Virus record (IMG/VR): IMGVR_UViG_3300035661_000264
Coordinates: 1-29,649 of that record
Length of the DNA: 29,649 nucleotides
Direction: 5' to 3' (one strand)
Source: a virus
The position numbers and the translations under genes were made by a program. Positions within the stretch are counted from its first letter, which is position 1; every line of letters begins with the position of its first letter. Shown piece by piece: positions 8,126 through 25,858 of this stretch. Below the pieces are notes generated by a model. That model made no database searches and had not been told where the DNA came from. It saw only the letters and a list, made by a program, of their open reading frames with translations.

Positions 8126-9067
8126 TCACTTCTTGCCCTGGGAGGCCCAGAACGCTTTGTTCTGGGCATTCAGCGAAGACAACGAGGTTGCCTGCGACGG
8201 TGCACCAGAGGGGGTCGGAACGCGGTGAGCGGTGTCGCCCACAGAGGTCCGGTTGTTGAGGAGTTTCTTGGCCCCGGCCGCGGCGCGGAAGAGCACTGCA
8301 GTCTGGGCGCAATCCTGCTTGCTGAGGTTCACGTCAGCGACCCCGGCCACGGAGTCGACCAGCGCCTTGCCGTCAGCGGTGATGTAGACCGAGCTCAGCA
8401 CTTGCTTGCGCAGAGCGCACATGTTGTCGACGGTCTTCTGGCGCGTGGTCTTCGCGTCGAAGGTCGGCATGCGGAAGCCAGGCAGCAGGATCTCGGCGTC
8501 GCTCAAGAGCTGACGGAACGAAGTCTCCAGGCCGGCCGAGTCGTTGGTGGCCTTGCGATCACCGGTCTTGACGTTCGACATGTCGCCCGCTTCGCCGGAG
8601 TCACCGGAGTCGGGCAGCTTGACGGTGCCGGTGTTGCCCATCTCGTCTTGCGTCACGTCTTCAGGCGCTGCGGGAGACCGTTCGCCTTCCGCCGGAAGCT
8701 GTTCGCCACCTTCGTCACCGCCTTGAAGGATGGCGAGGATCTGGGCCATCTGACCTTCCAGGACCGTCAAGCGCTCCTCGGGGGTCCTACCACTAGCGGG
8801 GGCACCACTAGCGGGGGCACCACTAGCGGGGGCACCACTAGCGGGGGCACCACTAGCGGGGGTGCCGCCAGCTTCACCCGAATGGATGTGGATGTGGGTG
8901 TGGTTGCCGTCGGTCTCATCACCGTCGGGCTCTTCGCCGGGTTCGTCGCCGTCAGGAATGCCGGAGTTGCCGAGCTGTTCCAGGGCCGCTTCTTCCGCGT
9001 CCTTGAAAGAGCGCCGCACGGCTTCTTTGACCGCATCGGAAACAATCCGCCGCGTCTTATGCTTCAT
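8126..9067 (-). CDS. Nested in-frame scaffold protein (internal start in the protease gene)
   Basis: ATG 9067 lies in frame inside the protease gene and is preceded by a very good Shine-Dalgarno, GAAGGAG, six bases upstream. The product would be 313 residues starting MKHKTRRIVSDAVKEAVRR, containing only the acidic, low-complexity and coiled-coil part and lacking the protease domain. Phage lambda (C and Nu3) and Mu make their scaffold in this way from an internal start in the protease gene. The sequence shows the start and ribosome site. That the product is made is inference. Confidence 0.6.
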   Translation of the reverse strand: MKHKTRRIVSDAVKEAVRRSFKDAEEAALEQLGNSGIPDGDEPGEEPDGDETDGNHTHIHIHSGEAGGTPASGAPASGAPASGAPASGAPASGRTPEERLTVLEGQMAQILAILQGGDEGGEQLPAEGERSPAAPEDVTQDEMGNTGTVKLPDSGDSGEAGDMSNVKTGDRKATNDSAGLETSFRQLLSDAEILLPGFRMPTFDAKTTRQKTVDNMCALRKQVLSSVYITADGKALVDSVAGVADVNLSKQDCAQTAVLFRAAAGAKKLLNNRTSVGDTAHRVPTPSGAPSQATSLSSLNAQNKAFWASQGKK

Positions 9068-9673
9068 TGAGTTCTCCTTCAAGGAGGTTGGATGATGGTC
9101 GCCGATTGCACAGCGCGGGCCACAGCGACCTCTTTCGACCAGCGCAACATGATTGCCGATTATATTGGTCTGACGACCTTGACCCTCCCCGGTCTGTTCG
9201 TAGTCAGCCTCGTAACCAGCAGACACTTCTCGCTTGCCGGCCAGCACGTCACGGATCGTGTCAGCGTCCGTAATCAACAGGTCGGCTAGCATCACATCGG
9301 AGTCGTCTCCAACTCCTCGACGTGGGTTCATACAGATGCCCACAGCGAACGTCTTCCAGTTGGAAGGGTTCACGTCGACATCGGGGTGATCGTTGACCAC
9401 GGGCTTGCCTTGGTAACTCGACACGGCCGACTTGGAGAACAGAGCCTCTGCGTCGCGAGTGATCGTAGCCCGGCCATCCTTACCCGCCGCGATGGGCGTT
9501 TCCTGAGGCCCGTAGACCATGTCGCCGATCCTGGCGATAGGCACGTCCTCGCAGAGCAGGAAGCCTTCCGGAGTCTTCGACTGCTTGGCTCCTAGCTTCT
9601 GGGTCGTGAAGACCTCAGTCGCCGTGTCAGCGCGATCCCGCGTGAGACGGCGGCGGTTCCATTTGATGCCCAT
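8126..9673 (-). CDS. Prohead protease, DUF2213 type, with fused scaffold-like region
   Basis: A protein of 515 residues. ATG 9673 was chosen for its GAAGAGG site and because it follows the MuF-type gene by 13 bases. Residues 1-195 match the pattern of DUF2213 proteins: KTPEGFLLCEDVPIARIG, the PVVNDHP segment (His96), DVMLADLLITDAD, then REVSAGYEADYE (Ser151) and NHVALVERGR. This family is regarded as capsid maturation protease; His96 and Ser151 are plausible catalytic residues. Residues 203-515 are acidic, helical and of low complexity, with five GAPAS repeats and a LTVLEGQMAQILAIL coiled-coil-like stretch, as in scaffold proteins. The C-terminus is conserved-looking (LPGFRMPTFDAKTTRQKTV). 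It would line the prohead and be degraded on maturation. Confidence 0.82.
   Translation of the reverse strand: MGIKWNRRRLTRDRADTATEVFTTQKLGAKQSKTPEGFLLCEDVPIARIGDMVYGPQETPIAAGKDGRATITRDAEALFSKSAVSSYQGKPVVNDHPDVDVNPSNWKTFAVGICMNPRRGVGDDSDVMLADLLITDADTIRDVLAGKREVSAGYEADYEQTGEGQGRQTNIIGNHVALVERGRCGPRCAIGDHHPTSLKENSMKHKTRRIVSDAVKEAVRRSFKDAEEAALEQLGNSGIPDGDEPGEEPDGDETDGNHTHIHIHSGEAGGTPASGAPASGAPASGAPASGAPASGRTPEERLTVLEGQMAQILAILQGGDEGGEQLPAEGERSPAAPEDVTQDEMGNTGTVKLPDSGDSGEAGDMSNVKTGDRKATNDSAGLETSFRQLLSDAEILLPGFRMPTFDAKTTRQKTVDNMCALRKQVLSSVYITADGKALVDSVAGVADVNLSKQDCAQTAVLFRAAAGAKKLLNNRTSVGDTAHRVPTPSGAPSQATSLSSLNAQNKAFWASQGKK
8789..8863 (-). repeat. Tandem 15-bp repeat, five copies, encoding GAPAS units
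   Basis: Five head-to-tail 15-bp units (plus strand ACCACTAGCGGGGGC, last copy ending T) run through 8789-8863. They encode APASG five times in the linker of the protease/scaffold protein. Copies are identical except the final base, so they probably arose by recent slippage and keep the reading frame because the unit is a multiple of three. Confidence 0.93.
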
Positions 9674-9686
9674 GAATCGGCCCTCT

Positions 9687-10433
9687 TCAATCGTTAGGAA
9701 AGATCGGCTCGGCGAAGCAGCGGCAGTTAGGCAGAGTGCCTGCGTGGCCCACAAGACCATCGAGCGTAGGCGGGTTCGACCAACGTACATACTTGCCTTC
9801 CATCTTGTCGTGCGACTCGCGCACATTCATGTCACCCGACGTTCTCCAAATGTAGCCGTCAGATCCTGCGTACTGAGACCTAGCCTGCGTTAGGTTCGAT
9901 GCAGCGCGGGCCACTTCGGTCCTTGCTATCAGCCTGGCTCGGCCTTCCGTGACCGATTCAGTTCGCATGATCTCGGCTGCTACTTCAGAAGCTCGACGAG
10001 ATTCAATGAGGGATTGTAGTGAAAGCGAGTGGACGCGCTCCGCCGCTTCTAGTGGCAGAGACTTGATGAGTGCGACCTGTTCAGCCTGGAGGCCCGCAAG
10101 AGCCTGGCTCACGGGCGCGTCGCTGGTCAACAGCTGGCGCATCTCCGTGCCCATCTCCTGTGAAGTCTTGAACCACATCTGCTTGTCACGCCGGGCCACA
10201 TCAGCAAGCATCATTCCTGCCACGGAACCGGCCCAAGGCTCGATTAGTTTCGCGTAGTCGGTCAAAGCCTTGAGCAGAGGTTTTACGTTCGTCAAAACGC
10301 CTTTGGGGGCCATGCCCTTGACGATGGCCCCCACCTGCTTCGCAACTGACCTAAGTGCGGAGTTGTACGCGCGCTCGCCGTTGCGTGCCTTGGTCCACTT
10401 GGCCCTCTTGCCCTTGCGGTCCAGCTTGGCCAT
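9687..10433 (-). CDS. MuF-type head morphogenesis protein (SPP1 gp7 family)
   Basis: A protein of 248 residues. The C-terminal half has the MuF signature: ARTEVARA (170-177), YIWRTSGDMNVRESHDKMEGK (a little past 194), and GHAGTLPNCRCFAEPIF (229-245) with His208, His230, Cys237 and Cys239. The N-terminal half is helical and basic. MuF proteins are minor head proteins next to the portal and are needed for correct head assembly or DNA ejection. ATG 10433 has GGAG seven bases upstream and follows the portal stop by ten bases. The gene lies between portal and protease, its usual place. Unlike many MuF proteins it carries no extra C-terminal toxin domain. Confidence 0.88.
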   Translation of the reverse strand: MAKLDRKGKRAKWTKARNGERAYNSALRSVAKQVGAIVKGMAPKGVLTNVKPLLKALTDYAKLIEPWAGSVAGMMLADVARRDKQMWFKTSQEMGTEMRQLLTSDAPVSQALAGLQAEQVALIKSLPLEAAERVHSLSLQSLIESRRASEVAAEIMRTESVTEGRARLIARTEVARAASNLTQARSQYAGSDGYIWRTSGDMNVRESHDKMEGKYVRWSNPPTLDGLVGHAGTLPNCRCFAEPIFPND

Positions 10434-10443
10434 CTACTTTCTC

Positions 10444-11976
10444 CTATTGCGCCTGGAAGCCCGGCTTTTCTTCTGGGGTGGGGGTAGGCCCACCTGCATC
10501 CGGGGAGGCCATTGGCGGGGCTCCTGATGCGCCTGGCATGGCGTCTTCTGCTGGCGGGGGAGCGACTTGGTCGTCGGCCTCGTCGATCATGCGTCGAGTG
10601 ACGTTAGTGAAGACCCCGGTCTGCCTCGACGCCTGGCGCAGTTCCTTCAGCGCGGTCTGCGGGCTGATCACGCCAGCCTCAAGGACGGCATTCACCGTGT
10701 CGGCGTTGGTCTTCGCAATGTTGGCCTTCTCTTCGTCCTTCAGCTGCCACAGAGACTTGAAGCCAAGTTGAAAGTTCTGCGGAAGTTCAAATCCTTCCGA
10801 CCGAGCGATCAGCTTGTAGATCGTGGTAACCCCTTCGTGCAGGTCCGACATCTGAAGCTGGTTGATGTGGTCGTAGTACATGCGCAGGTCCGACTCGCCG
10901 GTCGAGTTCAAGCCCGCGGGCGATTGGCCGAAGAGCCGCACCAGCGGGATCTGCAACGCGCCGGAGAGCTGCTGCCCGAACTGAACAAGGGCATCAGACA
11001 GGCCGGAGAAGGCCTGCGAGGTCTGCACCTCGAACTTGTCTTCTGCGTCGATGACCGTGATGCCCTCGATGCCCTGGAAGCGGCGCATCATGTCGACGTA
11101 GGAGGTGAGGCCCGTCAAAGGAGCCCCACCAGCGGCGACGATGTCACGCAGACCAGCGACGGAGAGCGTGCGCAGGTACGACTTGTAGACCAGCTGCGCG
11201 GCGCCCGTCGAGGCCGAGTCGAACGCGATCATGCGATCGTAGAGCCGTTCGATGACTGACAGGCCCCACAGGTTCTCCATCAACCGCTGCTGGTACGGCA
11301 GGCTCACACCGACGTGCCTCACCATCACGCGTGAGTGATGAACGGCCGCGCCCCGCAGAGCAGGAGCCGCCTGATTCACCCGGTAGTACTTCGGCATGCC
11401 GAGATTCGGCCCGAAGTCAGTGACGAGGTCTTCAAGCGTTGGTTCGACCATCCACCGGTCAAGCGCGAGCAGGCCCTTGTATTGACGAGGGCCCACAGTG
11501 TCGATTCGCAGAGGGGTGCGCATGTCTTGCCCGTCGATCAGCGCGACCGCAATGCAGCCACCATACAAGCGGCCCCACTTGATCGTCTCGTTGATCTGGT
11601 GCCAGGTTCCGGAGCTTGTGGCCTTGCGGTCCATGCGCTCACTCTGTTCAGGATCGAGCTCGGTGATGTACTCGATGCCGGCACGGGTCATGTCATCTGC
11701 AACCACGTCGACGGCCAGGCCACCAAGCCACGATCCCCGGTGAATCCACTCAAGCTGGGTCTTCAGCCGCGTGATGGGGTTGAAGCCGTAGGCTGAACTT
11801 GAGAGCGAGTTGTCGGCGCCAACACCCAGCTTCATGGAGAAGTTGACGAACGAGTCGTTGGTGGCCGCTCCGAGGGATGGGGCTCCGTCCTTGGTGGGCG
11901 TGGCAAGCTTGATTCGGGTCTTGGCGTCTTCACGCAGCGCGGCCTTGGCCACGCCTTTGACTGATACGCGGGCCAT
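10444..11976 (-). CDS. Portal protein, DUF1073 family
   Basis: A protein of 510 residues that resembles the DUF1073 portal family (also called the anti-CBASS Acb1-like portal group by name of the domain entry). Recognisable parts: SAYGFNPITRLKTQLEWIHRGSWLGGLAVDVVADDMTRAG as several blocks near residues 62-100, KWGRLYGGCIAV, the ENLWGLSVIERLYDRM segment, IPLVRLFGQSPAGLNSTGESD near 345-365, then YYDHINQLQ. The last 45 residues are Pro/Ala/Gly-rich and probably disordered. Twelve portal subunits form the channel for DNA entry and exit and the docking site for terminase and connector. ATG 11976 follows the upstream stop by three bases, with GAGG about ten bases upstream. Confidence 0.9.
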   Translation of the reverse strand: MARVSVKGVAKAALREDAKTRIKLATPTKDGAPSLGAATNDSFVNFSMKLGVGADNSLSSSAYGFNPITRLKTQLEWIHRGSWLGGLAVDVVADDMTRAGIEYITELDPEQSERMDRKATSSGTWHQINETIKWGRLYGGCIAVALIDGQDMRTPLRIDTVGPRQYKGLLALDRWMVEPTLEDLVTDFGPNLGMPKYYRVNQAAPALRGAAVHHSRVMVRHVGVSLPYQQRLMENLWGLSVIERLYDRMIAFDSASTGAAQLVYKSYLRTLSVAGLRDIVAAGGAPLTGLTSYVDMMRRFQGIEGITVIDAEDKFEVQTSQAFSGLSDALVQFGQQLSGALQIPLVRLFGQSPAGLNSTGESDLRMYYDHINQLQMSDLHEGVTTIYKLIARSEGFELPQNFQLGFKSLWQLKDEEKANIAKTNADTVNAVLEAGVISPQTALKELRQASRQTGVFTNVTRRMIDEADDQVAPPPAEDAMPGASGAPPMASPDAGGPTPTPEEKPGFQAQ

Positions 11977-11979
11977 TGG

Positions 11980-12726
11980 TTATTCGTCCTCTTTGGTGGG
12001 GATCCAGACCTGCGTCTGTTGGCCCTTGGAGTTGTAGGCCGATCCCCAAGCACCCGCGAGCTTCTGCTTCATGGCCGGTGAGGCTTTCAGTGGGCCCCGC
12101 GCGCCTGGGATTGAAACAGTGGTCTTCTCCCCCTTGGCGTTGTAAGCCGGAGCCATCACACCAGGGCTGGCGGCCGGCTTGAGCTTGCCGGCCAACTTGA
12201 CCTTCATGGCTGGTGAGATGTTCAGTTGGCCAGGCGCAGGAGTGGCGGGCTTCGGTTGGGGCACCGCGAGCGGGGATCCGGCGACCGCGTCAGCCTGGGC
12301 CTGCATCGCCTCAAGTTGCTTCACGGCGTCGGCACGAGCAGCCAGAGGCTTGGAGGGATCAGCGGCCACGGCCTTCAGTTGCTCGGCATTGGCAGCCCCT
12401 CCGGCATTGGCTTCAGCCTGCTCTGCGGCCTTGGTCGCGTTGTGTGCCTTCTGGGCGTTGTGCTCCTGCCAGCCGGTCTGCGCGGCGATGTGCTGGGCGG
12501 CCAGCGTGTGAGCCTGAGCAGCGTCCGCGTGGGCCTTGGCCACCTGCTTATCGGGGTGCTTGGCCGCGGTCGCGCTGTGCTGGCTTGCCGCGGCCTGATG
12601 CTGCTGCGCCGAGAACTTGCCGCCTTCGTCGCGCTTGACGCTCGACTCGTCAAAGCCTGCGTCCTTGGCCTTGAAGGCCTTGCCGCCGCCACGGCCGCCC
12701 ATGTAGATGTGAACTCGTTTGGTCAT
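11980..12726 (-). CDS. Ala-rich low-complexity protein with C-terminal duplication, unknown function
   Basis: A protein of 248 residues. I chose ATG 12726, which begins MTKRVHIYMGGRGGGKAF; the longer frame to 12978 overlaps the upstream gene. Residues 25-40 (DESSVKRDEGGKFSAQ) resemble a short tag seen at ends of phage head proteins. Residues 45-150 are Ala/His/Gln-rich and probably helical. Residues about 170-245 contain two copies of a motif: SPAMKVKLAG and SPAMKQKLAG, each followed by a Gly/Pro-containing stretch and by YNAKGEKTTV or YNSKGQQTQV ending in IP. It lies just upstream of the portal. A packaged internal head protein or scaffold is possible. No enzyme motif is seen. Confidence 0.68.
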   Translation of the reverse strand: MTKRVHIYMGGRGGGKAFKAKDAGFDESSVKRDEGGKFSAQQHQAAASQHSATAAKHPDKQVAKAHADAAQAHTLAAQHIAAQTGWQEHNAQKAHNATKAAEQAEANAGGAANAEQLKAVAADPSKPLAARADAVKQLEAMQAQADAVAGSPLAVPQPKPATPAPGQLNISPAMKVKLAGKLKPAASPGVMAPAYNAKGEKTTVSIPGARGPLKASPAMKQKLAGAWGSAYNSKGQQTQVWIPTKEDE

Positions 12727-12733
12727 GTCAGGC

Positions 12734-12997
12734 CTAGTTGTGTGGTTCGACGTGGTCAGCCATCCACTCATCGTCCATGATGAGGCCGGCCGCAACAGCA
12801 TGATTGTAGACGGGGCTCTTTCTGAACGACGCGAGGTCGGGGAATAGAGCCATGAACTCAGGCGACTTATAAGGAGGCAGGTCCCAGCTCTGTTTGGTCC
12901 AGTCTGCGCTAGCCAGGTCGGCGTCAATGCTGACGGTCTCGGGCTCGTTGGAATCGCGAGTGACCACGCGGTTGCCATGGTGCTTGTAGCGGGTCAT
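12734..12997 (-). CDS. Small conserved-looking phage protein, unknown function
   Basis: A protein of 87 residues starting MTRYKHHGNRVVTRD. ATG 12997 overlaps the stop of the ADP-ribosyltransferase gene by four bases (ATGA), so translation is coupled to it. The C-terminal part (PPYKSPEFMALFPDLASFRKSPVYNHAV, then AGLIMDDEWMADHV) looks like a compact helical domain. No metal or catalytic motif is visible. The coupling makes a partner, chaperone or loading role for the large protein upstream conceivable, but nothing in the sequence proves it. Confidence 0.68.
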   Translation of the reverse strand: MTRYKHHGNRVVTRDSNEPETVSIDADLASADWTKQSWDLPPYKSPEFMALFPDLASFRKSPVYNHAVAAGLIMDDEWMADHVEPHN

Positions 12998-15432
12998 AGG
13001 GGCTCTCCGTATTGGTTCACGTGGGCTTTCTTGTAGGTCGACAGGACCTGCTCGTTGGTATAGCCGGCTTTCTTCAACGCGTCATACAGCACGCCGGTGT
13101 GCATTGGGTGGTTGAATACAGACTCCTTCAACTTCTTGTAGTAGTGCGCGTTCTTCTTGACCCCCTCTGCAGTCACCGGGGTGGGTTTGGAGACCTTGAG
13201 CTGCTTCGCCTCCATCTTCGCGATCAACTCCTTGGTGTACTTCTTGGTCTTCGGGACGCCGGTCTTATCGGCCATGCTGGCCAAGTGCGCCTTGAGCCCG
13301 GCAAGGTCCCCGGCCTCGGCGTACAGGAACGCCTTCTTTGCGAGTGTTCCGGTGCCAACGGGCTGCGGCGGCACAGAGCCAGAGTATGCAGAAGGAGTTG
13401 GGGCGGCGGGTGGGGCAGCGGCCTTCTGGCTCTCGTGAATGGCCTTCTCCGCCTTGCCGACAGGTCCCGGGGTGCCGTTGATATTGTGGGCGTATTGATT
13501 GATGTGCGACGACATCTGCGTGGCGGTAGGGCCGACGAGCGATCCAATCTGGATGGCCTTCAAGTTCTCGTGGTTGAGCACGACCACCTCAGACTCGTCC
13601 GTGCAGCCGTAGCCCGTGCAGAAGGATCCCAGCACCTGACTCGCCGGCACCTTGACCACGAACAACGAGTGACCCCCGGAGAAGCCATCGGCTGTGCTAT
13701 GCTCCGTGCTGAACGACGAGGCGGGCTGCAGCTTGAGGTTGACCATCTTGGCCGGATCGCCGCCAGCCCCGAACTTCATGCCCCGAATGAGGTGCAGCTC
13801 CTTAACGCCCAGCTTCGCCAGGTGGTCCTGCGTCTCGTGATACTGGGCCAGCATGAAGTCCTGCATGCCCTTCTTGTACGACTCCAACTTGACCGGGGTC
13901 GATACGTCGATCCCATACTCATTGGCCGCCTTCTTGTGCACTGCATCTTCGTCGCCGTTGAAGTACTGCAGTGAGCCAAAGGCCTTGGTCTCGGTCTTGC
14001 TTGGGTCCATGCCGAATACATCACGGCAGGCCAGCTGCGCAGAGACAGCCCGGTCGTCGGAGTCTCCTGAGCTACCAGCCCAACACGAGATGATGGCTGC
14101 TTCGAGTGAACCACCAAAAGCGTGCGTGCTGACGTATTGCTGCTGCATGTTCTGGAAGTGAGGCGAAGCCTTCAACCTCTTTTCCAACCTATGCTGCACC
14201 GCGATCTTGTTGCTGACCGGATCGGAGGCACTCGCATGCAGCTTCTCGTGAAGTTCTGCGATGCCTTTCACGTAACCAGACTCCGATTGGCCTGGCTGAG
14301 TGACAAAGTCGTCGGTGGTGATTCCCTTGTGGCCTTCTGGTACGAAAGACTTCGGGGCCTCAAACGACAACGGCCCGGCAAGGGCCTCAGACGTGATCTT
14401 GGCGGCCGGCGCCTCTGGCTCCTTTGCCTTGACGGCGGCCTTGGGGGCCTCAACCGCGGCAGCCTGCGTGGCCGCCTTGCCTAACTTGGCCACGTGGGTG
14501 TTCTGCTTCCACTTGGCCATCGCTTCCGCGACCTTCTGCTGCACCAGTGCTGGCTTGGCCTCATAGGCGAGGGCCAGGTCGTAGACGAGGTCTTCATCCT
14601 CCTTGAAGACCTCGACAGGGAGTGGCTTCTGGTCGACCCCAGTCGTATCGGCCTTCCACTGGGCCATCGCCTTGGCCTTCGACTTCTTCCAGAACTCCGC
14701 GGCTTCCTTCGACGGGGGGCCGCCGCTCGATACCATGCTCGCGGCCTCCTCATGGATAGCCGTCATCTGGTCGTTGTAGGCCTTATCGGCTTCGGCCTTG
14801 GTCATCTTGGTCGCCGGAGCCTTCGCAACCCCTGTCAGAGGCGACATGGGAGGGGCGGAAGCAGGGCTAGGAGCGATCGGAGGAGCCTCGGCAGGGGGAT
14901 TGGATAGGGTGGCTTCTTTCGGCGCCTCCTGGGCCTTCTCTTCCGGATCCTTGAACGGCGCCGGGACCAGCTTGGCGTCCGGGTCGACCTTGGGCAGCGC
15001 CTTGGCCACCTCACCGTTGGGCTTCACCACTTGGTACTGGCCCGGCCCGATCTTGACGATGCCGAGAGCCCCGGCTGCGTGCTTGCCGGCCTTCAGCTCG
15101 TTGATTGCGTTGTGCAGCTGCTGGTCGAGCTTGGCCCCGGTCGCCGCCTTCAGCTCCTCAAACGAAAAGGGATGGCCCGACGTGAGCAGCTCGTGAACGA
15201 TGTTCTTGACGCCCTTTGACTTCGCCTCTGTCGGCTTCGGCCCCAGAACCACGTCGGTGTACTGGTTACCGTAGAACGGGTGGCCAGGCTGGGCGTCATC
15301 GTGAGTCGACTGGCGCTCCATGATATCCATGAGCCGGGCCACCAGTTGCTTGTACTGCTCCTTCAAGCTGGGTGGGGTCATATCAACCGTGCGAACCCGA
15401 CCGCCTTTGTGAATGTGGAGATAGAGCGCCAT
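12994..15432 (-). CDS. Probable virion-associated ADP-ribosyltransferase (R-S-E class)
   Basis: A protein of 812 residues. Residues 390-630 carry the three marks of an R-S-E mono-ADP-ribosyltransferase: Arg550 in HLIRGM, the SSFST segment at 572-576 in place of the STS motif, and Glu613-Ser-Glu615 (ExE) in TDESEVVVL. A preceding SCWAGSSGDSDDRA segment (449-462) and QLACRDVFG are typical of the helical part of such domains in phage proteins. ExE enzymes move ADP-ribose from NAD to protein targets, often arginine. The N-terminus has a GHPFYGNQYTD tag (50-60) found in phage head proteins, followed by long Ala/Pro/Lys-rich linkers. The C-terminus (residues 690-812) is basic and helical. Encoded among head genes beside portal and MuF, it is probably packaged and injected, as T4 Alt is. 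Target unknown. No clear Shine-Dalgarno precedes ATG 15432. Confidence 0.72.
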   Translation of the reverse strand: MALYLHIHKGGRVRTVDMTPPSLKEQYKQLVARLMDIMERQSTHDDAQPGHPFYGNQYTDVVLGPKPTEAKSKGVKNIVHELLTSGHPFSFEELKAATGAKLDQQLHNAINELKAGKHAAGALGIVKIGPGQYQVVKPNGEVAKALPKVDPDAKLVPAPFKDPEEKAQEAPKEATLSNPPAEAPPIAPSPASAPPMSPLTGVAKAPATKMTKAEADKAYNDQMTAIHEEAASMVSSGGPPSKEAAEFWKKSKAKAMAQWKADTTGVDQKPLPVEVFKEDEDLVYDLALAYEAKPALVQQKVAEAMAKWKQNTHVAKLGKAATQAAAVEAPKAAVKAKEPEAPAAKITSEALAGPLSFEAPKSFVPEGHKGITTDDFVTQPGQSESGYVKGIAELHEKLHASASDPVSNKIAVQHRLEKRLKASPHFQNMQQQYVSTHAFGGSLEAAIISCWAGSSGDSDDRAVSAQLACRDVFGMDPSKTETKAFGSLQYFNGDEDAVHKKAANEYGIDVSTPVKLESYKKGMQDFMLAQYHETQDHLAKLGVKELHLIRGMKFGAGGDPAKMVNLKLQPASSFSTEHSTADGFSGGHSLFVVKVPASQVLGSFCTGYGCTDESEVVVLNHENLKAIQIGSLVGPTATQMSSHINQYAHNINGTPGPVGKAEKAIHESQKAAAPPAAPTPSAYSGSVPPQPVGTGTLAKKAFLYAEAGDLAGLKAHLASMADKTGVPKTKKYTKELIAKMEAKQLKVSKPTPVTAEGVKKNAHYYKKLKESVFNHPMHTGVLYDALKKAGYTNEQVLSTYKKAHVNQYGEPL

Positions 15433-15437
15433 GGTGA

Positions 15438-15854
15438 TCAGAAGGTCAGTTGGCCCACCAGCGTGAAGCCGATGTCTGCCAGAGTCGTATCAGCAACAGC
15501 CGGGCCGATCAACGCGAGCACATCACCAGCTGCAAACGATTGAGCGACGCCCGACGCCGTCACGAAGGTGCCGACCGCGGCGCCCAGAGCGAACGTGAGC
15601 GTGCCGCACGAGACTCCGTTCTTCTGGATGTCGATGGCGGTCGACGCAGTTGCGTTGGCAGAGGCCTTGGCCACGGAGCCGGCGAAGTTGATCGGGAAGA
15701 TGACGGCGTGGGCCAGGGGAATGCGCAGCAGCTTGCCGGAGTTGGCCGGCTTGCCAGCCAGGAAGCCGTAGACGCGCTCGTCGTTGGCGGTAGCATCGTT
15801 CAGCGCCAGCATGCGTGCCGCTGGCAACTCGAAGGGCGGGGCGTAGTTCGTCAT
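15438..15854 (-). CDS. Phage tail/appendage structural protein (beta-rich)
   Basis: A protein of 138 residues. The segment VIFPINFAGSVAKASANATAS, then IDIQKNGVSCGTLTFALGA and FAAGDVLALIGPAVADTTLADIGFTL (residues about 50-135, in separate parts), is a recurring domain of phage fibre and appendage proteins with alternating strands. ATG 15854 has AAAGGA about eight bases upstream. It closes the block of fibre-type genes before the ADP-ribosyltransferase gene. Function at the level of binding partner is unknown. It may be a trimerising or decorative domain. Confidence 0.6.
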   Translation of the reverse strand: MTNYAPPFELPAARMLALNDATANDERVYGFLAGKPANSGKLLRIPLAHAVIFPINFAGSVAKASANATASTAIDIQKNGVSCGTLTFALGAAVGTFVTASGVAQSFAAGDVLALIGPAVADTTLADIGFTLVGQLTF

Positions 15855-15867
15855 GATCGTGTTCCTT

Positions 15868-16188
15868 TCAGTAGAACTTCAGGTTGTTGACCGCGTAGTC
15901 ATACTCGGCGGTGGCTTGGTCATTGCTCGACCCGTACTCAGCGATGACCGTCACGCGCTTCACCTCTTGTGCGTTCGAGATGTTGCGGATCAGCGTGTCT
16001 CCCGAGGTGAGTGCGATCTCCATCTGACCGGCAAACGGCGGGCTCATCGGCGTCGAGGCCCTGACGTTGGTTTTCGTGGTCATGCAATCGACGCGGTATG
16101 TAACGGCAGTAGGGGCTGCGAGAGCCCCCAACTTGTCCTTGAACTGAATCGTCAGCCATGCCGACGACCCTTCATTGACTGTCTGCAT
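15868..16188 (-). CDS. Small Ig-like structural protein
   Basis: A protein of 106 residues that reads as a single beta-sandwich: VNEGSSAWLTIQFKDKLG, PTAVTYRVDCMTT, a MEIALTSGDTLI strand, then EVKRVTVIAEYGSS and a terminal YDYAVNNLKFY. Similar short proteins occur in phage structural clusters. ATG 16188 lies 12 bases after the upstream stop, with GGAATGAG as a weak ribosome site. Probably a small appendage or decoration component. No specific role can be assigned. Confidence 0.6.
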   Translation of the reverse strand: MQTVNEGSSAWLTIQFKDKLGALAAPTAVTYRVDCMTTKTNVRASTPMSPPFAGQMEIALTSGDTLIRNISNAQEVKRVTVIAEYGSSNDQATAEYDYAVNNLKFY

Positions 16189-16200
16189 GGCTCATTCCGA

Positions 16201-16683
16201 TCAGGAGAAAGTCACGGCCACGTCGAGGGTCCAGGTCTGGCCTGAAGCCTTGGTGCCTTGCGAGCTCACCTTGCGGTTGAGCGTCTTCAGCGCGCTGCCG
16301 CCGTTGTCGATGACGAACTCGTTCCACGCATAGTTCGCGTCGGCGCTGGCGAAGACCGCACGGAAGGTAACGGTCTGGGCACTGATCTGCGGGTAGCTGG
16401 ACTGCATCGCCTTGTAAGTCTTGTTCGCGGCGGCCTGGAGGTCAGTCTGCGAGGCGGCTTCCGCGGTGCTGCTATCGCCGACCCCGAGCCGCGCGTTGGC
16501 GTTGTTGAATGCGGTCTCAGCGCCGCCCGTGAGCAACAGGAGCAAAGCCCCGATGCCCTCGTTGAGCAGCATGTTGCCGTCGATGACCTCAACCGCGAAG
16601 GGCAAGCCGTGCTGGAAGGCCAGGTCGGATGCGAACTTGGTCAAGGTCCATTGAGTCTTGTAGACCGGCTTCTCGTGGATCAT
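16201..16683 (-). CDS. Phage structural protein of the fibre cluster
   Basis: A protein of 160 residues. The LLNEGIGALLLLLTGG segment (about 40-55), NANARLGVGDSSTAE (61-75), YKAMQSSYPQ, ANYAWNEFVIDNGG and the terminal TWTLDVAVTFS form a pattern I have seen in widespread phage structural proteins of unknown detail. ATG 16683 has AGGA seven bases upstream. It lies between the repeat protein and the small Ig-like protein. It is likely a virion component of the appendage, as its neighbours are, but no enzymatic or binding site is recognisable. Confidence 0.62.
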   Translation of the reverse strand: MIHEKPVYKTQWTLTKFASDLAFQHGLPFAVEVIDGNMLLNEGIGALLLLLTGGAETAFNNANARLGVGDSSTAEAASQTDLQAAANKTYKAMQSSYPQISAQTVTFRAVFASADANYAWNEFVIDNGGSALKTLNRKVSSQGTKASGQTWTLDVAVTFS

Positions 16684-16691
16684 GTTGAATC

Positions 16692-17468
16692 CTATGTAGT
16701 GAAGGTGAACAGGGTCCTGCGAGGCGCTAGGCTGAACAGAACGGAGCGTGATGAGAACGCGACCAGAGCGAGTCGCTTTCTCATTGTAAGGACGAGGGAG
16801 ACGATGCGAGTGTCGTCGAACGTACTGGCGCTGACCGAATCGACCCCGACCGCTTGATCGAGCAGAGCGAGGATCGCGGCCACCATGACGGCGTCACTCC
16901 CCAGCCCGGCGTCGGACAAGTTGAGGTTGACCGAGATACTGGTGATCGAGTCAAGACCCGATGCCGCGTCGACGATGGAGATCAGCGTCGATGGCAACGA
17001 GGCCAGGGCTACGTCAACCCCTGACCCGAAGTCGGCCAGGCTCAGGGTCACGGTAAGGGAGAGTCCCTCCGTGCCGAGGCCAGTGTCAGCAAGCGCCAGG
17101 AGCGCGCCGATGCTCAGGGTATCCGTTCCTGCCCCTGAGTCGGCGATCGCGGTGCCAATCGCTGCGGAGAGGGCTTCTGCACCGTATCCCGTGTCAGTGA
17201 TGGGGACAGATGCAGAGAAGGTCAGGGCCTCAGTCCCCGACCCAACATCGGTGAGGGTGAGCGCGATGGTCATCGACGAGCTGTCGGCGCCGTGACCTGT
17301 GTCTGTGAGGGGGACGGAGGCGGAGCCCCCGAATGAGTCAGCGCCGGCGCCCACGTCAGTCAAGGCGGCCGCCACAGAGATCGAGGCCAACGCGTCAGCG
17401 CCGACCCCGGTGTCTGTCAAGCTGACGATGGTGGGAGCAGGCCCGAGTAGGGCCAGCAGCAGCGACAT
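16692..17468 (-). CDS. Repeat protein with eleven 18-residue GxGxD/E repeats
   Basis: A protein of 258 residues. Residues 17-218 consist of eleven repeats. The first Asp of each falls at 19, 38, 56, 74, 92, 110, 128, 146, 167, 186 and 204, so the period is 18 with three exceptions (19, 21, 19). Each repeat has the form (T/A)DxGxGx(D/E)xLx followed by a hydrophobic strand. The GxGx(D/E)xL part resembles the RTX nonapeptide of calcium-binding beta-rolls, but here only every second nonamer carries it. The C-terminal 40 residues are basic and hydrophobic without the motif. ATG 17468 follows the upstream stop by three bases. A beta-solenoid appendage protein is the best guess. Calcium binding is inference. 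Confidence 0.7.
   Translation of the reverse strand: MSLLLALLGPAPTIVSLTDTGVGADALASISVAAALTDVGAGADSFGGSASVPLTDTGHGADSSSMTIALTLTDVGSGTEALTFSASVPITDTGYGAEALSAAIGTAIADSGAGTDTLSIGALLALADTGLGTEGLSLTVTLSLADFGSGVDVALASLPSTLISIVDAASGLDSITSISVNLNLSDAGLGSDAVMVAAILALLDQAVGVDSVSASTFDDTRIVSLVLTMRKRLALVAFSSRSVLFSLAPRRTLFTFTT
16845..17418 (-). repeat. Coding tandem repeat, about 54-bp period, eleven units
   Basis: The DNA counterpart of the eleven protein repeats has an average period of 54 bp. Units are diverged, with codon choice differing between copies, so the array is old or under selection for the amino acids and not a recent expansion. Compare the nearly identical GAPAS array at 8789-8863. Confidence 0.8.
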
Positions 17469-17471
17469 GGA

Positions 17472-18962
17472 TTACTCGAAGTTGCCGTCAAAGGTGACGC
17501 AGTAGGTGATGGTCTGCGAGGCGGTTGCCGTTCCGACCACGATCTTCATGAGCGTGGCAATGAACTCGCCAGGACGCACAACGATCGGGGAGTCAAAGGA
17601 CATGTAGATGTCCGGGGCATATAGCGCACCAATGGCCGCTGCAATGGCCGCCGACTGGAAGCCCAGAGCGACGCGACGCGGGGCGTGAGCGGTGGCCGTA
17701 GCGAAGGAGCCACTCTCAGTAGTGTTCATCGTCACCGAGTTGTGCCCGAACGCCAGCGACCACTGGATAGTCGTCGGCGTGGTGGCCACCGCGGCGCCCG
17801 TGTTGATCGTGCTGATGCGCACGCCCCTGATGATGAGGTTGCGGCCCGTGATGTTGATGGTGGGCGCTGGGTTCTGGTAGCTGGTGCAGATAAAGTCGGT
17901 GGCCGCCGCTGCTGCCGCATTGATTGCACCCACGCCACCCAGGCCAACGGAGTTCGCTGCCGTGTTGGAACCTGCCACGCTGGTGGGCAGCATAGGGCTC
18001 GAACCGGTGGTGATGGTGCCCACGAATTGCGTGTTGCCCATCGTGTGCCCGTTCTGGCCCACATAGGCGTTCTGGCCCATGACCGAGTTAGTCACCGACC
18101 ACGGACGCGCCGTGTCAATGTCCATCAGCGTGACCCCAACGCGAGCGACCCGGATGGTGTTGGTGTTGCTGACGGTGCCCGTGTTGTACTTCATCAGGAA
18201 CACCGGGGCCGAAGCCGCGACGAACGGGGTGCCGTTGGAACTGGGGAGGGGCTGCTCGCCAAGGAAGATGTCGTTCAGCCAGTACTCCACCCCGTTCTCA
18301 CCGACAACGACAGTTGACTTGTAATTGGTGCCCACCACCAACGAGGCGAACGGGTAGAGGATGCCGGATTCAACTTCCGTGCCGTTGTAAGCAATGACGC
18401 CCACAAGGCCAGCCGTAGTCAACTTGAGCCACACGCCATCCGTCGGGCGGGCCACAGCGGAGGAGGGGAGGCCGAGACCTTGCAGCCAGACTTCGCCGGC
18501 GACCATGGCCGCCGTCGTTTGCTGCCAGTAGAACTCCATGGCCAGAGGTGAGGTGTTGATCAGCGGGAAGTACTGCCACGAGCGCATGAACGCGCCGTGC
18601 GCCGAGGTGGTGCCCTGCACGGCAGAGAAGTTGACCGTGCCCGCGCCCGGCTGCGCTGCCGTCAAAGTGGCAGAGGTGTAGGCCCAGAGGTTCGTATTCT
18701 GGGCCGATGAGTTGAAGTTGTCGGTGAACAGAACCGAGTCCCGTCCCATGCGCAGCCGGTAGTCTGGCGAGGTCTCCGGAGACTTGAGGTAGGGCGTGCC
18801 GGTCTGGGCGCCCGGATCGTTCTCCGAGAAGAGTCGCATCCCGCCGACATTGCCTGGATTGGAGGCCGCATTGGTCTCAGGCACGACCATGAGTTGCTTG
18901 GAGGCATTGACATCGGCGCCAGTGCCCGAAGTAACGCCACGAATGACTGCGTCGAGTGACAT
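17472..18962 (-). CDS. Large phage structural protein of the fibre cluster
   Basis: A protein of 496 residues. ATG 18962 is chosen because AAAGGA lies seven bases upstream; an extra ten residues are possible upstream but lack this site. The N-terminus (LDAVIRGVTSGTGADVNASKQL) and the SPDYRLRMGRDSVLFTDNFNSS segment near residue 60-85 recur in phage structural proteins. Residues 85-280 read as a jelly-roll-like domain (WQYFPLINTSPLAMEFYWQQ, VEYWLNDIFLGEQPLP). The C-terminal half (VGLGGVGAINAAAAAATDFI and FGHNSVTMNTTES) is a second beta-rich domain. Probably an appendage or fibre protein. No enzyme motif seen. Confidence 0.65.
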   Translation of the reverse strand: MSLDAVIRGVTSGTGADVNASKQLMVVPETNAASNPGNVGGMRLFSENDPGAQTGTPYLKSPETSPDYRLRMGRDSVLFTDNFNSSAQNTNLWAYTSATLTAAQPGAGTVNFSAVQGTTSAHGAFMRSWQYFPLINTSPLAMEFYWQQTTAAMVAGEVWLQGLGLPSSAVARPTDGVWLKLTTAGLVGVIAYNGTEVESGILYPFASLVVGTNYKSTVVVGENGVEYWLNDIFLGEQPLPSSNGTPFVAASAPVFLMKYNTGTVSNTNTIRVARVGVTLMDIDTARPWSVTNSVMGQNAYVGQNGHTMGNTQFVGTITTGSSPMLPTSVAGSNTAANSVGLGGVGAINAAAAAATDFICTSYQNPAPTINITGRNLIIRGVRISTINTGAAVATTPTTIQWSLAFGHNSVTMNTTESGSFATATAHAPRRVALGFQSAAIAAAIGALYAPDIYMSFDSPIVVRPGEFIATLMKIVVGTATASQTITYCVTFDGNFE

Positions 18963-18973
18963 GCTGTTTTCCT

Positions 18974-19264
18974 TTAGTCTGCCCAGACCCAATTGAGCTG
19001 GAAGGTGCCCGTCAACTTCTCAGTCGACCGTGCGTAGATGGTGAAGCCGGTGGCGAGTGTGGGGGTGCCACAGGTGAGGCCCATAAGAGCCGCCGCGTAC
19101 CGGTGGTCGTTGGCCGTGTGGTCCGACGTGGTGTTGTCGGCCATGATGAACGCTTCAGCCTTGCTCGTGGTCAGGATGGATCCTTGGCCCGTGACGTTGA
19201 CTGAAGCCTCGTTGGAGCCAGGAACGGCCCCGAAGTCGATTGTTGCCGTTCCTTGGGCTGCCAT
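18974..19264 (-). CDS. Small phage structural protein
   Basis: A protein of 96 residues: GTATIDFGAVPGSNEASVNVTGQ, EAFIMADNTTSDHTANDHRY and TGFTIYARSTEKLTGTFQLNWVW in order. It recurs as a small beta-rich protein in phage tail-appendage clusters. The start directly follows the upstream stop (TAAATG), with AGGA eight bases upstream, so it is translated together with the adaptor-like gene before it. A minor virion part is likely; no more can be said. Confidence 0.66.
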   Translation of the reverse strand: MAAQGTATIDFGAVPGSNEASVNVTGQGSILTTSKAEAFIMADNTTSDHTANDHRYAAALMGLTCGTPTLATGFTIYARSTEKLTGTFQLNWVWAD

Positions 19265-20233
19265 TTAGCGGTCCTGGATCTGGAAGTAAATGGTGCGTTG
19301 ATCATGTCGGCCGCCAAGAGTCTGGAAGTCGAACATCACCGCGTTGGGAGCCCCGATTGTGCCTCCCCCGATCATTGCGGCCATCACGCCACCGACCATC
19401 CCTTCAGCGTGAACGGAAACATCAGAGCCCTCGGTAGGCGCCGCGTTGAACCCGGCGAGGGTGTCCTGGGAGTCAGCCAGCCAGGCAGTGATGTCGATCC
19501 CGTAGTCCAACACGGCTTGCGGATCCTTGATGAACACCGCCGCGGGGTGAGTCGCATCACTGTCGAGGTCGACCGCCGTCAAGCGTGATGGGGCGATCGT
19601 GTCAGGCAACTGGTAGCCGGTGAAGACCAGAGCAGAGATCGACGGGGTGACAGTGATATCCAGGGTGGCCGTGACCGGGAGCGTTCCCCCGAATGCCGCA
19701 GCTGCCAACAGACCAGGATACGTCTGGAGCGTCAAAGTGGCCGTAGCCGTGATTTGCTGCGAGCTGCCCGCGGTCGTGGCAAGGTCGGGGGTTGTGGTGA
19801 CTCCAAGCGTGGCCGTCGCGCTGAGGACCCCGGAGACAGTCGCCGCAGCGGCCATCACCGGAGTTGTCTTCACAGCCAGAGCGGCCGCAGCATTGAGCAG
19901 CGTGTTGCCGATGTTGACCGTGAGCACCGTGGCCGGGGCATTCTGGTCGACATCATCGACGATTAGGACGCCAGTTGCCGTGTAGATGCCATCTGCCGAG
20001 ACGGTGAACGTATACGAGCTGTCATCGTAGACGTAGAACGTGTCGAAGTTGTGAGACGTGATCCAGATCCGAACTGCGTTGGTCTGCAGCGAGTCAGAGA
20101 TCACGTCGTTGTAGAGGAGGGCCGGCACGCCATTCGAGCCGGTGCTCGGGATGGTGGCCCCCAGAACGCCTACCCAGGGCGTGTCCAGGATGCGCTTGCC
20201 ATCCCGGACTTGGTTCAGGTCGCGGAGCATCAT
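19265..20233 (-). CDS. Protein with fibre-tail adaptor-like C-terminus
   Basis: A protein of 322 residues. The last 85 (LDYGIDITAWLADSQDTLAG, then a Gly-rich stretch, then DFQTLGGRHDQRTIYFQIQDR) resemble phage fibre-tail adaptor proteins, which have a D(W)xxWL opening and a terminal GRxDxRTIxxxV strand and connect fibres to the tail. Residues 100-215 hold loosely repeated strands of the type ATATLxVTTTPxL. The N-terminus (DLNQVRDGKRILDTPWVGVLG, FDTFYVYDDSSYTFTVSADG) is a further beta domain. Two ATG codons lie in tandem (20233 and 20230). No strong Shine-Dalgarno precedes either. The call suggests that its neighbours form a receptor-binding appendage. Confidence 0.66.
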   Translation of the reverse strand: MMLRDLNQVRDGKRILDTPWVGVLGATIPSTGSNGVPALLYNDVISDSLQTNAVRIWITSHNFDTFYVYDDSSYTFTVSADGIYTATGVLIVDDVDQNAPATVLTVNIGNTLLNAAAALAVKTTPVMAAAATVSGVLSATATLGVTTTPDLATTAGSSQQITATATLTLQTYPGLLAAAAFGGTLPVTATLDITVTPSISALVFTGYQLPDTIAPSRLTAVDLDSDATHPAAVFIKDPQAVLDYGIDITAWLADSQDTLAGFNAAPTEGSDVSVHAEGMVGGVMAAMIGGGTIGAPNAVMFDFQTLGGRHDQRTIYFQIQDR

Positions 20234-20239
20234 GATGGT

Positions 20240-21709
20240 TTACGCCGGGGTGCCAGCTTGGTAGTAGACCGAATCGGTGAGGGCGTCGGCCCCCTGCTTG
20301 ACGATGAATCCGCAGCCCGCCACCTTGGCCAGCGTTGCCGTAGTGGTGGCCAGACCACCGGAGCCCAGCGTGATGTCCATCTCCACTGGCGTGATGCCAG
20401 AAAGCACGCCGACGCGGCCGCCCGGATACCACGTGAGCTTGACCGCGGTGCCAGAGGGCCACAGGCTGCCGGCGTTGTTCGACATCGGGCCAAAGGTCAT
20501 CGAGCCCGTGGCGACTGCGACGGTGATGGTGAAGACGTTCGACTCGACGAACTGGCTTGCCGTGTCGGTGGCCCTCACCTTGCAAGTCGCGTAAGTGCCC
20601 AGAGCCGAGGAGGTCCCCGAGATAACGCCGGTCGATGCGTTGACCGTGATACCCACTGGCCAGATTCCTTGAGCGCTGTAGGTCAGCGTATCGCTATCGC
20701 TAAACTTGCTGGCCGTCGAGACTGGGGTGATCGCCACCGCATTAACTGCGGAGATGTTGGAGATGTTCGGGCCGGGGAAGGTCGGCGGCGGGTTGGCCAC
20801 CGCATTCGACGTGTAGCTGAGGTTCGACGGGGCGATGAGGCCAGAGGTCGAGATCGAGATCGTCTTGACCCCGGTGGAGGCCGGCGTGTAGGTGAAGGTG
20901 GCCGACTGGGTCGCGCTGTTCAAGGTCACCGTGGTTGGGCTGAACGTCCCGCCATCGCCGCCATCACTCGGCGTGCAGACGAAGCTGCCCGAGGTGATCG
21001 TGCTGTCGGTGCCCACGGTGAAGTTGGTCGACGCGACGGAGACTGTGCCACTCGACGGGCCGGTCAGCGTCAGGATCGTCGGGGCGGAGATCGTGCCCGT
21101 CATGTCCCAGGCGAATCCGCCCCAGCCCGTTGTAGAAGAGCAGGTGGTGTTGATGTTGATGGATGAGCCGGAGGCCACCAGCGCATCAACGGTGATGCCC
21201 GCATAAGGGCCGTAGCCGACCTCCTGGTATTGCGACACGGCGGGGGCGTTGGCCGTATGCGGGACATTGGCCGCGTCCGCCCGGTAGGTCATCGACACCA
21301 CGTGGCCTACCGCGGTGGCTACCGTCATCAGCGGGTTGGTGCTGACGTTGCTGGCGAAGGTTGGCGGGGTGGTCAGTGCCGTGACGTTGTCATACAGCGC
21401 GTAGGAGACGCTCAGGTGGACCGCCGAGCTGGGCGTCACCGTCAGGGTCTGCGTGCCAGTAGGCATCGAGGCCCCCTGCAACCAGAAGGCGCGCAGGTAG
21501 CCGGTGAGTGAGCCACTGAACTGAGGAGTGCCGGCCGTCAGGGAGACGCCGCCCAGGTCGGCGGTCATCGGCATCTCAGACGAGGCCCCCCAGACCGTTG
21601 CAACAACGAGGATGGCTCGATTGCTCCCGGAGCCACAGGCCACCGTGAATGTCTCGGGGCCGAACTGGTCGTCCCGATAGTCTGCTGCGATTACTGTGGG
21701 TCTGGTCAT
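20240..21709 (-). CDS. Ig-like domain structural protein (tail appendage)
   Basis: A protein of 489 residues. Residues 1-210 form a beta domain (QFGPETFTVACGSGSNRAILVV, then SVSYALYDNVTALTTPP). Residues about 225-300 look like an Ig-like strand set (TNFTVGTDSTITSGSFVCTP, ATFTYTPASTGVKTISIS). Residues about 335-400 match putative Ig domains of the cadherin-like He_PIG type: DTLTYSAQGIWPVGITVNAS, TGVISGTSSALGTYATCKVRA, NVFTITVAVA. The C-terminal 85 residues are an additional domain. ATG 21709 has AAGGA six to seven bases upstream. Such Ig chains are frequent in phage appendages and aid binding to cell surface sugars. The exact part is unknown. Confidence 0.68.
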   Translation of the reverse strand: MTRPTVIAADYRDDQFGPETFTVACGSGSNRAILVVATVWGASSEMPMTADLGGVSLTAGTPQFSGSLTGYLRAFWLQGASMPTGTQTLTVTPSSAVHLSVSYALYDNVTALTTPPTFASNVSTNPLMTVATAVGHVVSMTYRADAANVPHTANAPAVSQYQEVGYGPYAGITVDALVASGSSININTTCSSTTGWGGFAWDMTGTISAPTILTLTGPSSGTVSVASTNFTVGTDSTITSGSFVCTPSDGGDGGTFSPTTVTLNSATQSATFTYTPASTGVKTISISTSGLIAPSNLSYTSNAVANPPPTFPGPNISNISAVNAVAITPVSTASKFSDSDTLTYSAQGIWPVGITVNASTGVISGTSSALGTYATCKVRATDTASQFVESNVFTITVAVATGSMTFGPMSNNAGSLWPSGTAVKLTWYPGGRVGVLSGITPVEMDITLGSGGLATTTATLAKVAGCGFIVKQGADALTDSVYYQAGTPA

Positions 21710-21718
21710 GGTCGGTCC

Positions 21719-22138
21719 TTATTCCGTGGTGGCTGAGTGAGCGCGTGAGAGCAGTTTGGCCAGCACGCTGTTGAATGTCTTACCACGCCAAAGCGTGGAC
21801 ATGTGAATCCTGATCGGGGCTGGATCACGGTCGTGGTGGGCAAGCCGGCCCTCCAGAGGCTTCAATCCGAGGTCGTGGAGTTCACACTCGCCGTCAGTGT
21901 AGAAGGTGCAGGCGGCTCCCGTGTCAGGCAGAGCCCTGGCCCCCTCCTTGCCCTTGGGAGCTGGCCCAACGAAGACCAGCTGCGTCGGATCAGGGCAGAG
22001 CTGGTAGGTGGCCAGGCGTGGCCCGTAGCCCCTCTTGATGAGAATGCGGGCCTCTTCAGGCGTGGGCAGGCAGACCGAGTGAGCGCACATGGCCTGGCAC
22101 TTCTCACAAGAGCACTGGGTTGTCTTCGGGATGATCAC
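21719..22138 (-). CDS. Cysteine-rich protein, YkgJ/zinc-iron chelating-like
   Basis: A protein of 139 residues starting with GTG at 22138, which overlaps the stop of the upstream gene by four bases (GTGA), with GAGG six bases upstream. It contains Cys9, 11, 14, 18, 23, 48, 77 and 85 and a FYTDGECELHDLGLKPLEGR segment (79-98) followed by HH at 101-102. This looks like the cysteine cluster of the YkgJ-type metal-chelating family, which binds zinc or an iron-sulphur centre. It is the one likely metal protein in the fibre block and may modify or assist folding of a fibre, or be carried along. Function is unknown. Confidence 0.66.
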   Translation of the reverse strand: MIIPKTTQCSCEKCQAMCAHSVCLPTPEEARILIKRGYGPRLATYQLCPDPTQLVFVGPAPKGKEGARALPDTGAACTFYTDGECELHDLGLKPLEGRLAHHDRDPAPIRIHMSTLWRGKTFNSVLAKLLSRAHSATTE

Positions 22139-25541: not shown

Positions 25542-25858
25542 GGTGCTGTGGCCCGGATCTTGAACGTGTAGGTGCCGGTGGCCAGGCTCGCGTCGAAGTC
25601 GATGCGGCACTGAGTCGGCGAGACGGTGACTAGGGTTGCGCCAGCCGGGAGCGAGTAGCCCGGCGTGACGGAGAAGGTGCAGGCGGTCGACGCTGTGCCG
25701 GTGATAGAGTTCGCTACCCCGAACGTGTGGTTGACGGTCTGGGCCCCATTGAACGCCCCCAGCCAGGTCGGCGCAGCGATAGGAGAGCCAATGCCCCCGC
25801 TACCACTACGCACGCCGCTAGCGAGTGCGACTACGTCTGGCTGTTGAGCGAACGGCAT
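25538..25858 (-). CDS. Small Ig-like appendage protein
   Basis: A protein of 106 residues. The C-terminal half (SLPAGATLVTVSPTQCRIDF, then LATGTYTFKIRATAP) matches the ending of a putative Ig (He_PIG) domain, and the middle (TVNHTFGVANSITGT) is strand-rich. ATG 25858 follows the upstream stop by two bases with no obvious Shine-Dalgarno. Its stop overlaps the next start (ATGA), so it appears to be translated as a unit with the large spike-like protein downstream. It may cap or attach that protein. Function unproved. Confidence 0.62.
   Translation of the reverse strand: MPFAQQPDVVALASGVRSGSGGIGSPIAAPTWLGAFNGAQTVNHTFGVANSITGTASTACTFSVTPGYSLPAGATLVTVSPTQCRIDFDASLATGTYTFKIRATAP

What the first reader, a model, noticed from the sequence alone, without database searches (positions are those of the whole stretch)
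12994..15432. Head-region ADP-ribosyltransferase, a candidate injected effector
Seen: Arg550 in HLIRGM, SSFST at 572-576 and ESE at 613-615 in the right order, in an 812-residue protein with long Ala/Pro/Lys linkers, encoded just before the portal. Known: R-S-E enzymes with ExE modify proteins, and T4 Alt is an ART packaged in the head and injected. Inferred: this is a virion effector with an unknown host target. The linkers and large size suggest a packaged multidomain protein.
Basis: partly seen in the sequence, partly recalled or inferred. Interest (0 to 1): 0.82.

Follow-up and report, generated by a model that had tools for sequence, protein, structure and literature searches.

The report
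Phage head-region ADP-ribosyltransferase with partner protein
This phage gene encodes an uncatalogued kind of ADP-ribosyltransferase, an enzyme that tags other molecules using NAD, which is made with the virus head proteins, probably rides into the next cell with the DNA, and nearly always has the same small partner gene beside it.

Summary
The ORF is real: minus strand, 15432-12994, 812 aa, with R550, S573-F-S575 and E613-x-E615 where reported. Alone that motif means little, since a loose R-S-E pattern occurs in 30% of shuffles. But 59 aligned relatives, mostly environmental phages, keep R550, E613 and E615 in 59/59 and S573 in 56/59. AlphaFold (pLDDT 87.6) gives R-S-E topology, and the best solved-structure matches are all ARTs. 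Pfam, PHROGs and NCBIfam do not recognise the window protein; some relatives reach Pfam DRAT.

Head association is supported: 10 of 50 relatives are MuF-ART fusions, one is a portal-ART fusion, and the order terL-ART-partner-portal-MuF recurs in L111. Packaging and injection remain inferred.

Two things were missed. (1) The next gene, 87 aa with core DWTKQSWDL, is a conserved partner: directly adjacent or fused in 41 of 59 ART loci, and an independent search with it alone found an adjacent or fused ART in 15 of 18 loci. It resembles toxin-immunity arrangements such as Bxa/Bsi but is better conserved than the enzyme. (2) Residues 50-59, GHPFYGNQYT, belong to a recurrent peptide between domains of phage multidomain proteins, up to 17 copies per phage.

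Verdict: head-encoded ART effector module; new family of a predicted class.

The parts
12994..15432 (-). 812-aa multidomain ORF carrying the ART domain
13513..14268 (-). ART domain, about residues 389-640: helical N-terminal lobe, then R-S-E core
   Evidence: alignment A5, AlphaFold pLDDT 87.6 / pTM 0.86, structural matches all ARTs
13783..13785 (-). R550, end of core strand 1
   Evidence: 59/59; strand 175-182 of the model
13708..13716 (-). S573-F574-S575, STS-like motif on the second core strand
   Evidence: S573 56/59, F/W/Y 59/59, S/T 57/59; strand 201-205 of the model
13588..13596 (-). E613-S614-E615, ExE motif at the fifth core strand
   Evidence: 59/59 for both Glu; strand 245-249 of the model
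15256..15285 (-). GHPFYGNQYT element (residues 50-59), recurrent peptide of phage multidomain proteins
14479..14820 (-). about residues 205-318: two helical repeat-like segments each ending in (A)QWKA/AKWKQ..T, kept in the close relatives L018 and L041; function unknown
   Evidence: read from sequences
12734..12997 (-). 87-aa partner protein; start codon overlaps the ART stop (ATGA). Core ADWTKQSWDLPPYKS
11980..12726 (-). about 248-aa protein with an IHIY start and RDEGGKFS motif; possible counterpart of ZHS_5 (IHIHLHR..KHPRASNGKF) before the portal in Edwardsiella phage vB_EpM_ZHS
   Evidence: weak similarity, inferred
10444..11976 (-). portal (DUF1073)
9687..10433 (-). MuF minor head protein

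Best explanation
A late, head-cluster two-gene effector module. Gene 1 is a multidomain protein whose residues 389-640 form an R-S-E ADP-ribosyltransferase of a family not recognised by Pfam, PHROGs or NCBIfam. It is most likely incorporated in the virion head with the portal/MuF complex and delivered with the DNA, where it transfers ADP-ribose from NAD to a host macromolecule early in infection (packaging, delivery and target inferred). Gene 2, the 87-aa DWTK-motif protein whose start codon overlaps the ART stop, most likely binds the ART and keeps it inactive in the producing cell, like the Bxa/Bsi pair (inferred). Shown: family, predicted fold, conserved catalytic residues, head-gene fusions in relatives and the tight genetic link to the partner. 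Not shown: activity, virion location, target, partner function.
For: R550, E613, E615 59/59 and S573 56/59 in 59 divergent members. AlphaFold model with R on strand 1, SFS on strand 2 followed by a helix, ExE at strand 5. Rows 1-42 of the structural alignment are all R-S-E-type ARTs, Z 4.7-6.2; a second member (L019) gives ART-fold proteins in rows 1-37, Z 6.1 down to 3.5, first unrelated row Z 3.5. Pfam DRAT found weakly in relatives, above its cut-off in L138 (26.1 vs 25 bits). MuF and ART in one ORF in 10 of 50 relatives, MuF elsewhere in the record in 17 more; portal + pentapeptide repeats + ART + partner in one 1142-aa ORF in L112; window order terL-ART-partner-portal-MuF repeated in L111. 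Partner: 41 of 59 ART-derived nonredundant loci directly adjacent or fused; 15 of 18 loci found by the partner alone carry an ART directly upstream or in the same ORF. Precedents: MuF-ART Bxa with immunity proteins Bsi and BAH (PMC11699363); 89.4% of MuF toxin genes followed by a small ORF (PMC5576092); head-packaged ARTs predicted (PMC9503650).
Against: No Z reaches 8 and Foldseek has no PDB hit below E 0.07. PF03496 does not match the window. SP-15 has the pair in a region of hypothetical genes, not among annotated head genes, and Rhodococcus/Euzebya plasmids carry the ART too, so head linkage is not universal. In four loci the partner is fused to the ART, and it is better conserved than the enzyme (mean 42% vs 34%); both are unusual for an immunity protein. 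17 of 68 loci have no detectable partner; some contigs are truncated.
Confidence: 0.62

Rival explanations
1. Same ART, but the small DWTK protein is an activator, folding or packaging partner (or substrate adaptor) rather than an inhibitor.
For: It is better conserved than the ART in 80% of paired comparisons, is fused C-terminally to the ART in four loci, one of them a portal fusion, and follows even 2800-3200-aa ART-bearing proteins by 15 nt. It is predicted to fold as a small helical domain (pLDDT about 90).
Against: Next-gene-downstream, overlapping order is the usual toxin-immunity layout (PMC5576092); the AlphaFold model gives no confident docking either way (pTM 0.74).
Confidence: 0.3
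2. The ART acts in the infected or producing cell (late host takeover, superinfection exclusion, or toxin-antitoxin stabilisation) and is not injected.
For: SP-15 and Rhodococcus/Euzebya plasmid copies are not in head clusters; a small partner next to it resembles a toxin-antitoxin pair.
Against: MuF fusions in 10 of 50 and a portal fusion place the enzyme physically on head proteins in phages.
Confidence: 0.2
3. ART fold retained but catalytically inert or only an NADase; structural role in the head.
For: Only fold and residues were shown; the ART superfamily includes NADases (PMC9503650).
Against: R, S, ExE and the flanking TGxG, RG and TQ residues are conserved across very divergent members, as expected for a working active site.
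Confidence: 0.15
4. Not an ART: chance R-S-E motif in a low-complexity phage protein.
For: A loose motif occurs in 30% of shuffles; no direct Pfam, PHROGs or NCBIfam hit.
Against: Conservation in 59 relatives, ART topology, structural matches of two members all ARTs, DRAT hit above cut-off in a relative.
Confidence: 0.03

Closest known systems
Bxa of Bacteroides stercoris prophage PhiBxa with Bsi and BAH (PMC11699363)
   Same: ART tied to the phage head through MuF, antibacterial, small neighbouring gene that blocks the enzyme.
   Different: In the window MuF is a separate gene; the partner carries a conserved DWTKQSWDL core and is fused in some phages; no ADP-ribosylhydrolase neighbour was noticed. 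Homology of Bsi to the partner was not tested.
MuF polymorphic toxins (PMC5576092)
   Same: Head-cluster toxins next to the portal, followed by small ORFs; MuF fusion in 10 of 50 relatives.
   Different: Window protein lacks MuF; the family also occurs as a portal fusion and in giant multidomain proteins.
Phage T4 Alt
   Same: Idea of a head-packaged, injected ART (PMC5512222, PMC9503650).
   Different: Sequence relation to Alt not tested; the phage is not T4-like; here there is a conserved partner gene.
Polyvalent-protein ARTs, Pfam ART-PolyVal PF18760 (H-Y-D type)
   Same: ART inside large phage multidomain proteins; same GHPFxGNQYT element between domains (L031).
   Different: Different active-site residues (R-S-E here) and no Pfam match of the window to PF18760.
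DraT, Pfam DRAT PF07357
   Same: Only Pfam ART family reached by relatives, aligned over the S..ExE part.
   Different: Window itself gives no DRAT match; DraT regulates nitrogenase reductase in cells (general knowledge).
Bacillus phage SP-15 SP15_258 and SP15_257
   Same: Only isolate phage in the collection with both the ART (30.6%) and the partner (58%) next to each other.
   Different: Partner lies upstream; not in an annotated head region; both annotated hypothetical.

Membership tests
R-S-E ADP-ribosyltransferases | Arg on strand 1, S-x-S on strand 2, ExE at strand 5 | tested here: met
R-S-E ADP-ribosyltransferases | ART fold | tested here: met
   Two members modelled; top 42 and top 37 aligned structures are ART-fold proteins, Z up to 6.2, first unrelated row Z 3.5 for the second. 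Each Z is below 8.
R-S-E ADP-ribosyltransferases | NAD-dependent transferase activity | not testable with these tools
   needs an assay
Pfam PF03496 ADPrib_exo_Tox (VIP2-like) | profile match over cut-off | tested here: not met
   no match at E<=10
Pfam PF07357 DRAT | profile match over cut-off | tested here: inconclusive
   window none; relatives 0.0003-0.009; L138 26.1 bits vs cut-off 25
Pfam PF18760 ART-PolyVal | profile match and H-Y-D active site | tested here: not met
   no match; residues are R-S-E
MuF polymorphic toxin | MuF domain in the same protein | tested here: not met
   window MuF is a separate gene; fused in 10 of 50 relatives
MuF polymorphic toxin | small ORF directly downstream | tested here: met
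   87-aa partner, ATGA overlap
MuF polymorphic toxin | downstream protein confers immunity | not testable with these tools
   needs co-expression
Head-packaged injected effector (T4 Alt-like) | protein present in virion and injected | not testable with these tools
   no virion data; main text of the SP-15 genome paper has no virion proteomics

The most novel reading that the evidence does not exclude
GHPFxGNQYT (with HPRxxxGKF and HPAGxxGGQF forms) is a general, unreported address or cleavage element: it marks each cargo domain of head-encoded multidomain phage proteins for loading into the capsid, or is cut by the prohead protease to release separate effectors, of which this ART with its DWTK partner is one.
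Probability: 0.25. Interest if true: 0.88.

Novelty: new variant of a known kind. Interest (0 to 1): 0.66.

Why it matters
Head-packaged ARTs have been predicted widely but few are characterised. This family is unnamed, occurs in about a hundred environmental phage contigs, has one culturable representative (SP-15) and comes with a conserved partner, so activity, virion location and neutralisation can be tested directly. The recurrent peptide could give a sequence handle for finding head cargo in phage genomes.

Tried and rejected
Whole-protein searches of Pfam, PHROGs, NCBIfam, PDB sequences and PADLOC: nothing significant for the ART or partner. First viral scan with the whole protein found nothing because patterns fell outside the ART core; the ART-core profile worked. 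First profile scan of genome contigs found nothing. Partner searches in phage and plasmid collections: only SP-15 significant. Full-text search for the GHPFxGNQYT and DWTKQS peptides: no paper prints them, limited to open-licence PMC. Docking of the partner on the active site: the model gives a folded helical domain but no reliable placement. Spread in cells: 1 of 200 genomes in the order of the Rhodococcus hit, and that one was the query genome.

Full report
OBSERVATION. The ORF at 15432-12994 on the minus strand encodes 812 aa. R550, SSFST 572-576 and ESE 613-615 are where stated. The window is a 29.6-kb IMG/VR record with terL, DUF1073 portal, MuF, DUF2213, major capsid and DUF3383 sheath genes. 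Two genes lie between the ORF and the portal.

IS IT AN ART? The window protein matches no Pfam, PHROGs, NCBIfam or PDB sequence model convincingly, and a loose R-S-E pattern occurs in 30% of shuffles. Relatives decide it. tblastn found Bacillus phage SP-15 gp258 (30.6%, 4e-19) and Rhodococcus and Euzebya plasmid proteins. Profile searches then found 108 viral relatives, of which 80 were kept. In a 59-sequence alignment W451, Q466, T534, Q535, R550, G551, F584, G607, G609, E613 and E615 are invariant, and S573 is 56/59. ExE was in a search pattern, so its conservation is partly ascertained; R550 and S573 were not in any pattern. The AlphaFold model (pLDDT 87.6, pTM 0.86) places R at the first core strand, SFS on the second followed by a helix, and ExE at the fifth. 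Structural alignment returns only R-S-E-type ARTs in the first 42 rows (for example iota Ia, C2-I, CDTa, C3, ExoS, ART2.2, Vis; Z 4.7-6.2). A model of a second member, L019, gives ART-fold proteins in the first 37 rows with the first unrelated row at Z 3.5. Z values are modest, Foldseek alone gives no significant PDB match, and I rely on the agreement of fold, residues and conservation. Pfam DRAT, itself an ART family, is reached by several relatives, above its curated cut-off in L138, which holds two ART copies.

HEAD ASSOCIATION. In 10 of 50 ART records the open frame that holds MuF is the ART ORF itself, judged by identical frame length: L114, L117, L119, L126, L130, L137, L142, L144, L153 and L023. 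In L112 one 1142-aa ORF holds portal (3.7e-109), pentapeptide repeats, the ART and the partner. L111 repeats the window's order terL - ART - partner - portal - MuF. The viral structure library also lists head-morphogenesis proteins among the closest folds. Prior work predicted head-packaged ARTs and MuF-ART fusions (PMC9503650; PMC5512222). This supports but does not show packaging and injection.

THE PARTNER GENE. The 87-aa gene that overlaps the ART stop codon has homologues beside ARTs across the family. In 68 nonredundant ART loci it is the next gene downstream in 44, fused in 4, directly upstream in 1 (SP-15), farther in 2 and undetected in 17; leaving out loci found through the partner, 41 of 59 are adjacent or fused. 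Searched alone, the partner led to 18 loci, 15 of which have an ART directly upstream or in the same ORF; L183 and L184 have it some kilobases away and L185 is a short contig end. Several of these contigs are near-duplicates. It follows even 2824- and 3240-aa ART-bearing proteins by 15 nt. The core consensus is NADWTKQSWDLP; the first W is kept in all 41 sequences of the final profile. Small genes after the Rhodococcus plasmid and chromosomal ARTs (WDVR..LVTT..AMP) look like the divergent phage versions by eye. The arrangement is that of toxin and immunity genes (PMC5576092, PMC11699363), but the partner is better conserved than the enzyme and can be fused to it, so an accessory role stays open.

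THE REPEATED PEPTIDE. Residues 50-59, GHPFYGNQYT, belong to a peptide found in 78 stretches of viral contigs. In 46 of those records a degenerate DNA pattern finds 182 copies, up to 17 per record, always on one strand within a record; the reversed control pattern finds none. The records were chosen for having one copy, and some are near-duplicates. Outside this set, one further record (G050, home of L138) has one copy on the other strand. Copies sit between domains: L031 has ART-PolyVal at 302-443 between copies at 267 and 456, L100 has MuF 44-152 then a copy near 170, L091 has MuF, InPase, then a copy. L138, an ART relative, has seven in one protein. Where MuF is detectable, copies lie closer to it than under random circular shifts (p about 0.003-0.016). 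No paper in the searched library prints the peptide. Targeting, cleavage or mere linker are all possible.

NOVELTY. The class (head-encoded ART effector with a small neighbour) is known or predicted; this family, its partner and the peptide appear undescribed in the resources searched, which are limited to open-licence PMC papers and the listed libraries.

Noticed in passing
window 15256-15285 and many loci (L025-L102): Recurrent peptide GH[PEAD]FxGNQ[YWHF]T between domains of phage multidomain proteins, up to 17 copies per record on one strand; possible relation to HPRxxxGKF and HPAGxxGGQF motifs.
   Followed up: partly
L112:2762-6187: Portal protein fused to pentapeptide repeats, ART and DWTK partner in one ORF.
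   Followed up: partly
L006:3813-5622, L103-L105: Rhodococcus/Prescottella plasmid and chromosomal copies of the ART with a small downstream gene, near Abi and type I restriction genes on pSID.
   Followed up: partly
window 15438-25610: Between terL and the ART lie several tail-fibre or appendage-like genes (e.g. 15854-15438 matches a PHROG tail fiber family), unlike the compact terL-portal order of Edwardsiella phage ZHS.
   Followed up: no
window 8126-9826: DUF2213 protein contains a GAPAS repeat stretch (GAPASGAPASGAPASGAPASGR).
   Followed up: no
L150, L174, L175: Multiple copies of the ART in one locus.
   Followed up: no
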